A program made the translations under genes and the position numbers. Below the pieces are notes generated by a model. It saw only the letters and a program-made list of their open reading frames with translations, was not told the origin of the DNA and ran no database searches. A DNA stretch of 64,000 nt from Fimbriimonas ginsengisoli Gsoil 348 (GTDB taxonomy: Bacteria > Armatimonadota > Fimbriimonadia > Fimbriimonadales > Fimbriimonadaceae). This document shows positions 15,003 through 21,731 of the stretch, one piece after another. Numbering within the stretch: the first letter of the stretch is position 1; every line of letters starts with the position of its first letter. The DNA lies in NCBI GenBank assembly GCA_945881865.1, contig CAMCVK010000004.1:1-64000 (forward strand), in the 5' to 3' direction.

Positions 15003-15060
15003 AGAGACCATATGGAGGGATTGGAGAGACCTTGACCCAAGGTCTCTCCAATGGTCTCTC
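15003..15060. terminator. Nested double hairpin after efflux operon
   Basis: An inner 13-bp stem (15021-15033 with 15039-15051, loop GACCC) lies inside an outer 10-bp stem (15003-15012 with 15051-15060, sharing one base). Every arm contains GAGAGACC or GGTCTCTC. It starts 20 bp after the pump stop codon. It can end transcription from either side but lacks a T-run, and may instead be a protein-binding site of the island end. Confidence 0.6.
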
Positions 15061-15181: not shown

Positions 15182-15250
15182 TGTTCTGGGTGTGTCCATT
15201 CCAAACGCATGGGTTAAACCCAGATGGGTCAGTTAGGGTTTTCGGCTTCG

Positions 15251-15358
15251 TGGCACGGGTGAAGCCGGGGGTTTGTACCGGCATCACCCGTGTTCGGCGT
15301 GGGTTAGAGAGCACTGGTCACCGGGGCAAAAGCATCCACGCTGACCAGTGGCACCCAC
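15251..15358. repeat. Paired-hairpin intergenic repeat, copy 1
   Basis: First hairpin: CACGGGTGA (15254-15262) with TCACCCGTG (15284-15292). Second hairpin: CACTGGTCA (15312-15320) with TGACCAGTG (15342-15350). The linker between them reads TTCGGCGTGGGT. The same two-stem plan recurs five more times to 21.7 kb, always between genes. Confidence 0.8.
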
Positions 15359-15366
15359 GGGTCATA

Positions 15367-15415
15367 GGTGGCACGAGTGAAGCCGCAGGTTCTTACCGGT
15401 GTCACCCGTGTTCTT
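15367..15415. repeat. Paired-hairpin repeat, copy 2 (first hairpin only)
   Basis: It begins GGTGGCACGAGTGA and ends TCACCCGTGTTCTT. It contains only the first stem, with one G-A change that leaves an A-C mismatch, and it lies 9 bp after copy 1. It is a truncated member of the family. Confidence 0.7.
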
Positions 15416-15733: not shown

Positions 15734-16621
15734 ATGAACCCAACACTTCGGAGTGCTCTGACCTGGACGGTTTATCCAGGCGTGATGCTCATCAGCATTC
15801 TCATGTTCTATAGCCTAATCGCGCTTGGAATAAGCTCAACGATTAGTAGCTACCTCGCTGCGATTGTCTGCGGACTGGGCCTTATCACCGTCCTCGAGCT
15901 CGTCTTACCGTACCGAAAAGAATGGCTTCCAACTCGGCACGAGATCAAGACTGACCTCATCTTCATGGTGCTGGTGCAAGTTCTCTTGCCTTATCTTCTC
16001 ACCATTTTGTCGGTGGCCTTCCTCGGCGACTATGTGAAGAACATGGGCTGGAATATCCATGGCTGGTGGCCCCACAGCTACCCAATATGGATACAAATGC
16101 TAATCATGATGTTCACCGCCGACTTCTTTAGATATTGGCTGCACCGTGCCGCGCATACATGGGAACCGCTATGGAGGTTCCATGCTGTCCACCATTCCGT
16201 TCAAAAGCTCTACTGGATCAACGTTGGAAGATTTCACCCGATAGACAAAGCCCTCCAATTCATCTGCGATGTGCTTCCGTTTATTGTCCTAGGAGTCTCA
16301 AAAGAGGTCCTCGCGCTCTACTTCGTCGTGTATGCGGTCAAAGGCTTCTTCCAGCATAGTAACGTCGATACAAAACTTGGATGGCTAAACTTCATTATTA
16401 GTGGGCCCGAACTCCACAGGTGGCACCACTCAATGAAGGTCGAAGAATCTAACACGAATTACGGCAACAATGTAATCGTCTGGGATATTCTCTTCGGGAC
16501 ATACTTGCTCCCGAGGAACCAAGCGGTGGATGATCTTGGCCTGTACAATCGCGATTATCCCATGGACTTCGTCGATCAGATGAAGGCTCCCTTTGTTAAG
16601 GGCATTGATAAAGAGAAATGA
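15734..16621 (+). CDS. Membrane di-iron hydroxylase (fatty acid hydroxylase/sterol desaturase family)
   Basis: A 295-residue integral membrane protein with about five hydrophobic segments. It has the three His clusters of the family: HRAAH (137-141), HAVHH (150-154) and HRWHH (228-232). These hold two irons that activate oxygen to hydroxylate or desaturate a lipid substrate at the membrane; substrate unknown. AAAAGG precedes the ATG. It is the first gene of a three-gene operon, with the GH3 gene starting one base after its stop. Base composition is AT-richer than the flanking core genes, suggesting transfer. Confidence 0.88.
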   Translation: MNPTLRSALTWTVYPGVMLISILMFYSLIALGISSTISSYLAAIVCGLGLITVLELVLPYRKEWLPTRHEIKTDLIFMVLVQVLLPYLLTILSVAFLGDYVKNMGWNIHGWWPHSYPIWIQMLIMMFTADFFRYWLHRAAHTWEPLWRFHAVHHSVQKLYWINVGRFHPIDKALQFICDVLPFIVLGVSKEVLALYFVVYAVKGFFQHSNVDTKLGWLNFIISGPELHRWHHSMKVEESNTNYGNNVIVWDILFGTYLLPRNQAVDDLGLYNRDYPMDFVDQMKAPFVKGIDKEK

Positions 16622-16622
16622 G

Positions 16623-18296
16623 ATGCTCAGCAAGCGACTGTACTCTTCACCGCTTCTAACCCACCTGAAGATGAAGCTGTCTCAGCTTCGTGAGGTTAAG
16701 TCTTTCCTCGCAAGCTTAGACCGTCCAAAGCAGACGCAGGCAGCCGTGCTGAAGCGAATCTTAGCCCTTAACGAGACTTCTTCCTTTGGCAGGCAGCATG
16801 ACTTTTCATCCATAGCATCTGAGCGCGACTTTCGAGATCGAGTCCCTCTTCACAACTATGAAGATTTGAGGCCATATATTGAGAGGCAGATCGAAGGAGG
16901 GGCTGGAGAACGGAGTCCGAAACCGTTGCTATGCCTCCAAACAAGCGGAACTACTGGGAAGCCGAAACTAATTCCCGTATATCGGGAAACGCTGCGATCC
17001 TATCGGCGTTGCCAGTCAATCAGCTCATACGCGCAATATATATCCATCAAAGGCATCCTGTCAGGTTCTGTTCTTGCGATAGTGAGCCCGAGGGTTGAAG
17101 GCCGTCTTGAAAATGGAATGCCCTACGGCTCGATGTCGGGAGCGATTGCTCAAAGTCTCTCCAAGGCTGTTTCGTCGCGAGGAGTCCTGCCAGAAGCCAT
17201 CTTCGAAGTTCCCAATTACGAAGATCGCTATCGACTGATTGCCGCTCTTGCCCTGAGTGACGCAAATATTTCAGCTTTTGCCAGTGCCAATCCTTCTACT
17301 TTCATCAGACTAGGTGAGGTCATCTGGCGCCACTCGGAGAGCCTGCTTCGATTTATAGAAACCAATGACGTCGCGGCGTTAGGTCTACAGCTACCGCATA
17401 AAGAGAGCTCAGCCGTGCTGTCAGCTCACAAGCCGAGCCGTGCGCGAGCAGCCGAACTGAGGGAGTTGATACGAAGGCACGGCCGCCCAACTTTCTCCCA
17501 ATTGTGGCCTAACCTTAGGGGTGTTGCCACGTGGACGAATGGGAACTGCGCCTTGCTGATTCCCGCTCTTAAGAAGGAACTGTCGAGTGAAGTGTGCATA
17601 ACTGAGATGGGATATATGGCATCTGAGTTCTGGGGGACCATAACTATGGATCCGGGTCTCAATGGTGGCTCCCTTACGATTCAGGACAATTTTTATGAAT
17701 TCATCGAACCGCATGCATGGGATAGCGGCATTCGAGAAACTCACTTGGTCTCCGAAATAGAAGAGGGCAAGCAATACTACATCATCGTAACAACGCCCGA
17801 AGGACTCTATCGGTATTTCATAAACGATATCATTGAGGTTACGGGATCCTATAGAAGAACACCCACGATCAAATTCGTTCAAAAAGGAAAGGGCGTCACG
17901 AGTCTCACGGGGGAGAAGCTTTATGAAGGGCAAGTAATCCAGGCGGTGCAAGAAGCATGCCTGGGAAGCAAGATTAACATCGATCACTTTGTAATGCTCG
18001 CAGATCGCCAAGAAATGTCTTACATCCTGTATATCGAGTGTAGTTACGAGATTGATATTATTAACTTTGCTGAAGACGTGTATGCGCATCTTGGTAAATT
18101 CAATGTGGAATTTGGCGCCAAGCTCGAGAGCGGTCGAATCAGGAGCGCGAAAGTTCGGCGGGTAGCGCAGGGCACATTCGAGTCCCAGAAATTGATGGCA
18201 ATTAGCTTCGGACAAAGAGAGGGGCAGTTTAAGACTATTAAACTGCAATACCAGGACGAAGTGGCCTTCCCATTTCACGAGTACGTGTACGGATGA
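16623..18296 (+). CDS. GH3-family acyl-adenylating amido synthetase
   Basis: A 557-residue cytoplasmic enzyme of the GH3 auxin-responsive promoter family (ANL-related). It shows the ATP-binding loop LQTSGTTGKPKLIPV (from about residue 105), the family segment ATWTNGNCALL, the ITEMGYMASEFWG block that contacts the acyl group, and YRYFINDIIEV preceding the hinge. GH3 enzymes adenylate a carboxylic acid and transfer it to an amine, usually an amino acid. Here the acid could be the product of the hydroxylase. ATG 16623 lies two bases after the upstream stop, and the 3' end overlaps the next gene by ATGA. The substrate is not predictable by eye. Confidence 0.87.
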   Translation: MLSKRLYSSPLLTHLKMKLSQLREVKSFLASLDRPKQTQAAVLKRILALNETSSFGRQHDFSSIASERDFRDRVPLHNYEDLRPYIERQIEGGAGERSPKPLLCLQTSGTTGKPKLIPVYRETLRSYRRCQSISSYAQYISIKGILSGSVLAIVSPRVEGRLENGMPYGSMSGAIAQSLSKAVSSRGVLPEAIFEVPNYEDRYRLIAALALSDANISAFASANPSTFIRLGEVIWRHSESLLRFIETNDVAALGLQLPHKESSAVLSAHKPSRARAAELRELIRRHGRPTFSQLWPNLRGVATWTNGNCALLIPALKKELSSEVCITEMGYMASEFWGTITMDPGLNGGSLTIQDNFYEFIEPHAWDSGIRETHLVSEIEEGKQYYIIVTTPEGLYRYFINDIIEVTGSYRRTPTIKFVQKGKGVTSLTGEKLYEGQVIQAVQEACLGSKINIDHFVMLADRQEMSYILYIECSYEIDIINFAEDVYAHLGKFNVEFGAKLESGRIRSAKVRRVAQGTFESQKLMAISFGQREGQFKTIKLQYQDEVAFPFHEYVYG

Positions 18297-19381
18297 AATT
18301 AAAACAACTTGAGATTCGCAAATTGGAAATTCCGTTTCGGTTTTCATTCAAGCATTCTTCAGCAGAGCGCTCGGTTACAGAGGCAGTGATTGTCGTTGCC
18401 GAATCGGATGCCTTTGTCAAAGGATATGGAGAAGGTTGTCCGAGGGGATACGTGACGGGAGAAAGCATTGACTCTTGTTTGCGCTTCTTTGAACTGTGCC
18501 GTGATGAGCTACTGCAGATACAGGACGTTGAGTCATTAAGGAAGTGGGTTTCGATCCATAGTCAGCTTATCAATGCCAACCCAGCAGCTTGGTGCGCGAT
18601 AGAAACTGCGCTACTCGATCTTCTCGGAAAGACTGAAGGTCATTCTCTTGAGGCACTCCTCGGAATCTCTGAGATTTCGGGCGACTTTGCCTACACCGCA
18701 GTTCTTGGCGTATCGTCACCGAGAATCTTTGAAGCGCAGTGCGAACAGTATCATCGCCTTGGACTCACGGATTTCAAGGTTAAAGTGTGCGGTGAGTTAG
18801 AAAGCGATGTTTCCGCGATCGGAACTCTAACGAAACGGTTTCCTGCCTCTCGAATACGTATTGATGCCAACAACTTATGGGAAGAAGCTGATGCCGCGGC
18901 GAGCTACATTTTGTCGTTGGGTTCTAGCCCGTGGGCAGTAGAGGAGCCCCTTAAAGCGGCCGACTTTCCGTCGTTAAGAAAGGTTGCGAAGGCGCTGGGC
19001 TGCAAAATTGTCCTCGACGAAAGCTTTCTCGGCCTTCAGACGTTTGATCAAATTCAGGATGATCTAGATATTTGGGTTCCAAATATTCGCATCTCCAAAA
19101 TGGGTGGATTATTGAGATCTCTAGCCGTTGCCGAGAAATGCAAGCAGCTGGACCTGAATTTCATTATCGGAGCGCAAGTTGGTGAAACAAGCATTCTGAC
19201 TCGCATGGCGCTTTCTTTGGCAAGTCACTATCGTGACAGCGTGATAGCGCAGGAAGGTGCGTTTGGTACCTATCTCTTGGCTAGCGATGTAACGGATGCT
19301 CCCATCATGTTTGGGGCAGGTGGATTCCTGAGAGCGAACTTTGTTGGACTTCCTGGCTTAGGGTTTGATGTTAATCTCTGA
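18293..19381 (+). CDS. Enolase-superfamily enzyme (muconate-lactonizing/dipeptide-epimerase subgroup)
   Basis: A 362-residue enzyme: an alpha+beta capping domain (about 1-125), then a TIM barrel. Catalytic residues of the MLE subgroup are visible: Lys162 and Lys164 (FKVKV), Asp191 (RIDANN), Glu217/218 (VEEPL), Asp242 (VLDES) and Lys269 (ISKMGG). Such enzymes remove a proton next to a carboxylate, as in epimerisation of amino-acid or dipeptide stereocentres, or dehydration. In this operon it could epimerise the amino-acid part of a GH3 product; that is inference. Its ATG overlaps the GH3 stop. Confidence 0.85.
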   Translation: MKLKQLEIRKLEIPFRFSFKHSSAERSVTEAVIVVAESDAFVKGYGEGCPRGYVTGESIDSCLRFFELCRDELLQIQDVESLRKWVSIHSQLINANPAAWCAIETALLDLLGKTEGHSLEALLGISEISGDFAYTAVLGVSSPRIFEAQCEQYHRLGLTDFKVKVCGELESDVSAIGTLTKRFPASRIRIDANNLWEEADAAASYILSLGSSPWAVEEPLKAADFPSLRKVAKALGCKIVLDESFLGLQTFDQIQDDLDIWVPNIRISKMGGLLRSLAVAEKCKQLDLNFIIGAQVGETSILTRMALSLASHYRDSVIAQEGAFGTYLLASDVTDAPIMFGAGGFLRANFVGLPGLGFDVNL

Positions 19382-19430
19382 GGTTCACACGGTCGGACCA
19401 TGCCTATGGAACAACGCTCGGTTAACGGCT

Positions 19431-19540
19431 GGGTGGCACGGGTGAGGCCGGAGGTTAGTACCGGCATCACCCGTGTTTAGCTTGGCTCGATGGGCACTGG
19501 TCACCGAGGCACAATCATCCACGCTGACCAGTGGCACCCG
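19431..19540. repeat. Paired-hairpin intergenic repeat, copy 3
   Basis: It begins GGGTGGCACGGGTGAGGCCG and ends GACCAGTGGCACCCG. Both stems are intact (CACGGGTGA/TCACCCGTG and CACTGGTCA/TGACCAGTG). It starts 50 bp after the enolase-type gene. Confidence 0.8.
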
Positions 19541-19556
19541 GATTTCAGGATTTGGT

Positions 19557-19665
19557 GGGTGGCACGGGTGAGGGCGGAGGTTAGTACCGGCATCACCCGT
19601 GTTCGGTGTGCAACAGAGAGCACGGGTCGCCGAGGAACCAGCCTCCCCGGTGACCCGTGGCACCC
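19557..19665. repeat. Paired-hairpin repeat, copy 4, with compensatory stem changes
   Basis: The first stem is as in the other copies. The second reads CACGGGTCGCCG and CGGTGACCCGTG, so T-A in the usual stem is replaced by G-C with both partners changed. Pairing is kept while sequence differs, which argues that the hairpin matters. Confidence 0.8.
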
Positions 19666-19981: not shown

Positions 19982-20005
19982 CCAAAAGGACAGCTCCGCG
20001 CGGCT

Positions 20006-20115
20006 GGGTGGCACGGGTGAGGCGGGAGGTTTTTTCCGGTATCACCCGTGTTCGGCGTGGGTCGGCCAGCACTGGTCACCGAGGCAGAAGAATCCTCCGC
20101 TGACCAGTGGCACCT
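20006..20115. repeat. Paired-hairpin intergenic repeat, copy 5
   Basis: GGGTGGCACGGGTGAGGCGG to TGACCAGTGGCACC, with both stems intact. It lies between the zinc-ribbon gene and the HEAT-repeat gene. Confidence 0.8.
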
Positions 20116-21548: not shown

Positions 21549-21623
21549 ACGTGACTCGGCCTTGAGAAATATATGTGAGATCAGAATATTTGGGCCCTCG
21601 TCCGATTCCGCCCACTAGTCATA

Positions 21624-21731
21624 GGTGGTACGGGTGAGGCCGGAGGTTTTTTCCGGCATCACCCGTGTTCTCCGTGGGTCCATAAGCACTGTTCACCGAG
21701 GCACGAGCATCCTCGCTGACCAGTGCCACCC
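21624..21731. repeat. Paired-hairpin intergenic repeat, copy 6
   Basis: It runs from GGTGGTACGGGTGAGGCCGG to CAGTGCCACCC. The second stem has decayed on its left arm (CACTGTTCA) while the right arm remains TGACCAGTG. It lies 28 bp before the VanZ gene. Confidence 0.75.

What the first reader, a model, noticed from the sequence alone, without database searches (positions are those of the whole stretch)
15734..19381. Three-gene cassette: membrane hydroxylase, GH3 amido synthetase, enolase-superfamily enzyme
The three enzymes are co-translated (2-bp gap, then ATGA overlap), keep their catalytic residues, and are AT-richer by eye than the genes around. Family knowledge: the first oxidises lipids, the second joins an acid to an amine via an adenylate, the third shifts a proton next to a carboxylate. 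I know of no described pathway with this trio. A hydroxylated fatty-acyl amino acid with an epimerised centre is a reasonable guess.
Basis: partly seen in the sequence, partly recalled or inferred. Interest (0 to 1): 0.75.

Follow-up and report, generated by a model that had tools for sequence, protein, structure and literature searches.

The report
Conserved hydroxylase–GH3–enolase operon, probably lipid-making
Three neighbouring genes for a membrane hydroxylase, an amide-forming enzyme and an enolase-type enzyme recur side by side in at least five bacterial phyla, with two of them fused into one protein in one genome, so they very probably build one molecule together, most likely an undescribed fatty-acid–amino-acid lipid.

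Summary
The trio is real: HYD 15734-16621, GH3 16623-18296 (1-bp gap, not 2), ENO 18293-19381 (ATGA overlap), at 48.5-49.8% G+C against 55-65% for its neighbours. The host is an Armatimonadota bacterium; no GH3 was found in 60 relatives, so horizontal gain is likely. An ENO+GH3 pair without HYD is common in Planctomycetota and Omnitrophota. No paper found describes trio or pair. Best reading: GH3 joins a fatty acid to an amino acid (as OlsH does), ENO acts on the alpha-carbon, and HYD (OlsE-like) hydroxylates the lipid. By NCBI models with positive controls, GH3 is not OlsH and HYD is not OlsE. Substrates and product are inferred; nothing was assayed.

The parts
15734..16621 (+). HYD: membrane fatty-acid-hydroxylase-superfamily protein, 295 aa, sister family of ornithine-lipid hydroxylase OlsE
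   Evidence: PF04116 1e-30; OlsE model 198.7 bits, cut-off 475; histidines invariant in nine sequences
16623..18296 (+). GH3: acyl-adenylating amido synthetase, 557 aa
   Evidence: GH3 N, M and C domains; model pLDDT 88.1, best solved match JAR1 4epl, Z 40.7
18293..19381 (+). ENO: enolase-superfamily (MLE-like) enzyme, 362 aa, with K162-x-K164 and R266 in place of the second catalytic lysine
   Evidence: MR_MLE domains; model pLDDT 92.5; closest profile match N-succinyl-Arg/Lys racemase 2p88, 2e-65; residue table
15020..15052 (+). Terminator-like 15-bp hairpin after the upstream RND gene; suggests that the trio is transcribed on its own
   Evidence: Pattern scan only; total count not above shuffles
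15237..15414 (+). Copies of a ~120-nt intergenic repeat upstream of the trio; may mark the insertion site
19420..19665 (+). Two copies of the same repeat downstream of the trio

Best explanation
A horizontally acquired, translationally coupled operon that makes a modified amino lipid. GH3 activates a fatty acid as an acyl-adenylate and joins it to the amino group of an amino acid (inferred from the family and from OlsH). ENO binds the free carboxylate of that conjugate through Mg2+ and removes the alpha-proton with K164; the net result is either inversion at the alpha-carbon or a one-base elimination or isomerisation, because the usual second lysine is R266 (unresolved, I lean to one-base). 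HYD, a histidine-rich membrane hydroxylase, adds a hydroxyl to the lipid, as OlsE does to ornithine lipid. Shown here: gene families, active-site residues, conserved linkage, HYD-GH3 fusion, trio-specific clades. Inferred: substrates, order of steps, product.
For: Same order and strand with gaps of -11 to +11 bp in seven genomes, plus a planctomycete with HYD and GH3 in one 849-aa frame followed by ENO. Trio copies cluster in the HYD (93), GH3 (96*) and ENO (100*) trees; pairwise identities of the three proteins correlate across nine genomes. Starting from ENO, 18 of 40 loci have GH3 next to it. OlsH precedent for a bacterial GH3 making an N-acyl amino acid (PMC12493201); OlsE as nearest named family of HYD; N-acyl amino acid racemase as nearest solved relative of ENO. 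Host has no OlsB/OlsF-type N-acyltransferase domain.
Against: No substrate or product is known; GH3 and HYD fail the OlsH and OlsE cut-offs. ENO's second catalytic lysine is arginine, so its reaction cannot be read from its relatives. Pair-only loci show that HYD is not always needed. No O-acyltransferase lies beside the trio.
Confidence: 0.5

Rival explanations
1. ENO is a true N-acyl amino acid racemase/epimerase: K164 serves one face, R266 acts as acid/base on the other, and the lipid carries a D-amino acid.
For: Closest solved relatives are N-succinyl-Arg/Lys racemase and dipeptide epimerases. DgcA, an N-acetyl-D-Glu racemase, is among the NCBIfam matches. K-x-K and metal ligands are intact. 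A racemase acting on the product of an N-acylating enzyme fits the linkage.
Against: R266 instead of the second lysine in 50 of 52 members, against Lys in all eight references; N-succinylamino acid racemases use a Lys/Lys pair (PMC8142540).
Confidence: 0.3
2. ENO is a one-base enzyme: K164 does all proton transfers and R266 only stabilises the enolate, as proposed for the second lysine in OSBS-type enzymes (own knowledge), giving a dehydrated or isomerised conjugate such as an N-acyl dehydroamino acid.
For: K164 kept, second lysine replaced by Arg; the superfamily includes syn-eliminating OSBS and cycloisomerases, which rank among the structural and family matches.
Against: No identified leaving group; in pair-only loci there is no hydroxylase to supply one; sequence is closest to racemases/epimerases.
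Confidence: 0.35
3. The trio makes a small secondary metabolite rather than a lipid: GH3 joins a polyketide or aromatic acid to an amine, ENO being OSBS-like.
For: Some other GH3 homologues lie near PKS genes (L008; L022, by eye); menC is the top NCBIfam match of the window ENO; plant GH3s that use benzoates are among the structural matches.
Against: menC score 93 against a cut-off of 200; no PKS gene seen beside any trio locus; HYD is a membrane lipid-hydroxylase relative fused to GH3 in L186.
Confidence: 0.15
4. It is a form of the known ornithine-lipid pathway (OlsH plus OlsE) with ENO as an accessory.
For: Same two superfamilies as OlsH and OlsE; the host lacks OlsB/OlsF-type acyltransferases.
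Against: Far below both model cut-offs while controls pass; two other trio genomes also hold an Acetyltransf_5 domain in a ~600-aa frame, as expected for OlsF; the ENO loops are cationic, unlike a pocket for ornithine (inference).
Confidence: 0.08

Closest known systems
OlsH-OlsI(-OlsG) ornithine-lipid pathway of Singulisphaera acidiphila (PMC12493201)
   Same: A bacterial GH3 enzyme with the three nucleotide motifs encoded in an operon with lipid-tailoring enzymes
   Different: GH3 scores 74.6 bits on the OlsH model (cut-off 620; controls 897 and 947); no OlsI or OlsG beside the trio; ENO and HYD instead
OlsE ornithine-lipid hydroxylase (Rhizobium; NF052566)
   Same: Full-length similarity (about 33% identity), same histidine motifs
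   Different: 177-203 bits against a cut-off of 475, rhizobial OlsE 491 and 517; separate branch of the tree; tied to GH3 and ENO, sometimes fused to TM4 or GH3
N-succinyl-Arg/Lys racemase 2p88 and the N-acylamino acid racemases
   Same: Fold, metal ligands, K-x-K base; best profile and Foldseek match
   Different: Second catalytic Lys is Arg; specificity loops carry H21, R26, R51, Y53
Dipeptide epimerases (3jva, 1jpm)
   Same: Subgroup and overall alignment
   Different: Carboxylate (DxD) motif that binds the dipeptide ammonium is EGxFG here; R266 in place of K268 of 1jpm
Plant GH3 enzymes (JAR1, GH3.12, GH3.15)
   Same: Fold (Z 38-41 over most of the chain) and ATP motifs
   Different: About 18-24% identity; acid and amino acid unknown

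Membership tests
GH3 acyl acid amido synthetases | GH3 domains over the curated Pfam cut-off and the three nucleotide-binding motifs | tested here: met
   169.2, 66.8 and 42.3 bits, cut-offs 23.6; motifs at 107-115, 331-335, 394-402
GH3 acyl acid amido synthetases | ATP-dependent amide formation between an acid and an amino acid | not testable with these tools
   needs an enzyme assay
OlsH (lyso-ornithine lipid synthetase) | NF052613 score of at least 620 | tested here: not met
   74.6 bits; controls L084 and L086 897 and 947 bits
OlsE (ornithine lipid hydroxylase) | NF052566 score of at least 475 | tested here: not met
   198.7 bits; rhizobial controls 517 and 491 bits
Fatty acid hydroxylase superfamily | PF04116 over cut-off and conserved histidine motifs | tested here: met
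   107.3 bits, cut-off 31; HRAAH, HAVHH, HRWHH invariant histidines
Enolase superfamily, MLE-like | MR_MLE domains, three carboxylate metal ligands, K-x-K | tested here: met
   D191, E217, D242, K162, K164
N-acylamino acid racemases (enolase superfamily) | Lys/Lys catalytic pair | tested here: not met
   R266 at the beta-6 position; pair stated in PMC8142540
N-acylamino acid racemases (enolase superfamily) | Racemisation of N-acyl amino acids | not testable with these tools
   needs an enzyme assay
Dipeptide epimerases | DxD motif near the end of the barrel (own knowledge) | tested here: not met
   EGAFG 321-325 instead
o-Succinylbenzoate synthase (menC) | TIGR01928 score of at least 200.65 | tested here: not met
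   93.1 bits

The most novel reading that the evidence does not exclude
An undescribed amino-lipid pathway spread over at least six phyla, built on a GH3 synthetase paired with a new catalytic subgroup of the enolase superfamily (Lys/Arg instead of Lys/Lys); the trio with an OlsE-like hydroxylase, and its HYD-GH3 fusion, is one branch of it.
Probability: 0.5. Interest if true: 0.8.

Novelty: new variant of a known kind. Interest (0 to 1): 0.62.

Why it matters
OlsH is the only characterised bacterial GH3 lipid pathway I found, and its authors say that many bacterial GH3 homologues probably use other amino acids (PMC12493201). This finding ties a large set of them to one specific enolase subgroup and, in one branch, to a lipid hydroxylase. 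It gives a concrete, testable product class, and an enolase subgroup whose catalytic pair differs from every reference enzyme checked here.

Tried and rejected
Chance co-location: rejected (recurrence in other phyla, fusion). OlsH and OlsE membership: rejected with positive controls. menC: below cut-off. OlsI in pair loci: their alpha/beta-hydrolases show only short, weak similarity to an OlsI control. Other GH3 carriers in the host's phylum (L003, L004, L005): distant GH3 without HYD or ENO beside them. Plasmid GH3s: 24-37% identity, and where annotated they sit in other clusters. TM4, a fourth gene of other trio loci, was sought in the host genome and not found. Promoter scan: nothing above the shuffled level. 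Dehydrotyrosine lipids (stieleriacines) as a precedent: their paper names no enolase or GH3.

Full report
OBSERVATION. The three open frames exist as described. HYD (15734-16621) is a PF04116 fatty acid hydroxylase, GH3 (16623-18296) carries all three GH3 Pfam domains, and ENO (18293-19381) is an MR_MLE enzyme. GH3 has an ATG at 16623, so the first gap is 1 bp; the second junction is an ATGA overlap. G+C is 0.485-0.498 in the trio and 0.547-0.648 in nine flanking genes, and the stretch is the G+C minimum of the window. It is bordered by copies of a roughly 120-nt repeat whose core was found only at 15.2-21.7 kb of the window.

HOST AND ORIGIN. The genome is Armatimonadota: a contig that the genome tool calls 'same phylum' (L004) is identical over 4332 bases to an 'Armatimonadetes bacterium DeMMO6_22' contig (L046). 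GH3 is single-copy in the host and absent from 60 relatives, 19 of them in the same genus. Only three other genomes of 291 in the phylum have a GH3 match; these are distant and have no HYD or ENO beside them. HYD is 71% identical to a copy in a 'delta proteobacterium' MAG. Horizontal gain is the simplest reading (inference).

IS IT A UNIT? One genome-collection scan with a GH3 alignment, followed by searches of the phyla of the hits, found HYD-GH3-ENO in the same order and strand. The loci are L012 (71/48/52% identity), L013, L014 (Vicinamibacterales), L015 (Acidobacteria), L122, L124 and L125 (a 3.7-Mb contig). Gaps run from -11 to +11 bp. L118 is cut by a contig end after GH3-ENO. L111 has the three genes with ENO and GH3 swapped. 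In L186 (Planctomycetota) HYD and GH3 are one open frame of 849 aa followed by ENO, with the HYD domain at 9-292 and the GH3 domain at 305-848. The trio copies sit together in the HYD tree (support 93), the GH3 tree (96*) and the ENO tree (a 100* clade that also holds the fusion genome). Pairwise identities of the three proteins across nine genomes correlate (Spearman 0.43-0.71, permutation p 0.001-0.006).

THE WIDER FAMILY. ENO and GH3 also form a pair without HYD (L018, L019, L020, L023, L033, L112, L123). Starting from ENO instead of GH3, 18 of 40 loci in Planctomycetota and Omnitrophota have GH3 beside ENO, or 16 of 38 if the two seed genomes are left out. The ENO profile used was itself built from GH3-linked copies, so this is not a fully unbiased rate. 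Some of these loci add an SDR and alpha/beta-hydrolases, which resemble OlsI only weakly. A fourth gene of other trio loci, TM4, is a roughly 150-aa membrane protein without a Pfam or NCBIfam match. It is fused to HYD in L012, L111 and L122, fused to an S15-type hydrolase in L014, and stands alone in L013, L124 and L186. It was not found in the host or in G847.

GH3. The model (pLDDT 88.1) matches plant GH3 enzymes best (JAR1, Z 40.7, rmsd 2.9 over 516 residues). The characterised bacterial GH3, OlsH, joins free fatty acid and ornithine with ATP (PMC12493201). The trio GH3 scores 74.6 bits against the OlsH model (cut-off 620), while Isosphaeraceae controls score 897 and 947. It is thus a GH3 but not OlsH, and its amino acid is unknown. 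The host has no Acetyltransf_5 domain, the N-acyltransferase type of OlsB/OlsF.

HYD. The nearest named family is OlsE (198.7 bits, cut-off 475); rhizobial OlsE controls score 491 and 517. All histidines are kept. It is a sister family to OlsE.

ENO. The model (pLDDT 92.5) and the profile both point to N-succinyl-Arg/Lys racemase 2p88 and dipeptide epimerases. The profile alignments are gapless around the beta-6 motif: N-I-K-x-x-K-x-G-G in 2p88, 3jva and 1jpm is N-x-R-x-S-K-x-G-G here. K268 of 1jpm, the catalytic lysine by my own knowledge and by counting along the printed sequence, falls on R266. In a 60-row alignment all eight reference enzymes have Lys there, while 50 of the 52 rows of the ENO clade have Arg; L174 has Lys and L164 has Ser. 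Nearly all rows of the clade also share H21, R26, R51 and Y53. The clade separates from the references with 97* support, but only eight references were used. PMC8142540 states that N-succinylamino acid racemases use a pair of lysines. Hence either arginine serves as the second acid/base, or the enzyme uses one base and does not racemise. The cationic loops suggest a substrate with a second anionic group rather than ornithine (inference; no distances were measured).

MECHANISM. Most likely GH3 makes an N-acyl amino acid, ENO removes the alpha-proton of that carboxylate-bearing conjugate, and HYD hydroxylates it in the membrane. The first step rests on family knowledge and the OlsH precedent, the second on residues and linkage, the third on the OlsE relation. 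None is shown by experiment. The order could differ, and ENO could act on the acid before GH3.

NOVELTY. Paper searches for the combination found nothing; subscription journals are mostly missing from that library. The parts belong to known families. The conserved trio, the ENO-GH3 pair and the Lys/Arg enolase subgroup appear undescribed. I rate it a new variant of a known kind, GH3-based amino-lipid biosynthesis.

Noticed in passing
window 15237-15414, 19420-19665, 19995-20114, 21612-21731: Hairpin-rich ~120-nt intergenic repeats; the core matched only in this part of the 64-kb window, on both sides of the trio.
   Followed up: partly
L186 7815-10364 (minus strand): Hydroxylase and GH3 synthetase fused in one 849-aa open frame in a planctomycete genome (G1122).
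   Followed up: yes
L012 5559-6005, L013 1398-1859, L014 3816-4268, L111 3267-3692, L122 8313-8747, L124 2450-2854, L186 10342-10770: TM4, an unnamed ~150-aa membrane protein next to or fused with the hydroxylase (or an S15-type hydrolase in L014); no Pfam or NCBIfam match; absent from the window's genome.
   Followed up: partly
L010 4206-10492: Mobilizable Citrobacter portucalensis plasmid from a gull carries a GH3 gene followed by three radical SAM genes and an N-acetyltransferase; G825 and G849 (L126, L127) carry GH3 of the same clade.
   Followed up: no
L019, L179, L183, L184: ENO loci with added S33-type alpha/beta-hydrolases and, in L019, L179 and L184, a 3-beta-HSD-like SDR; L019 also has a second GH3 gene.
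   Followed up: partly
L022 6899-15551: In a delta-proteobacterial MAG a GH3 gene is followed directly by what looks, by eye, like a large type I polyketide synthase.
   Followed up: no
L146-L163: Planctomycete enolases of the same arginine-type clade without an adjacent GH3 gene; what they pair with is open.
   Followed up: partly
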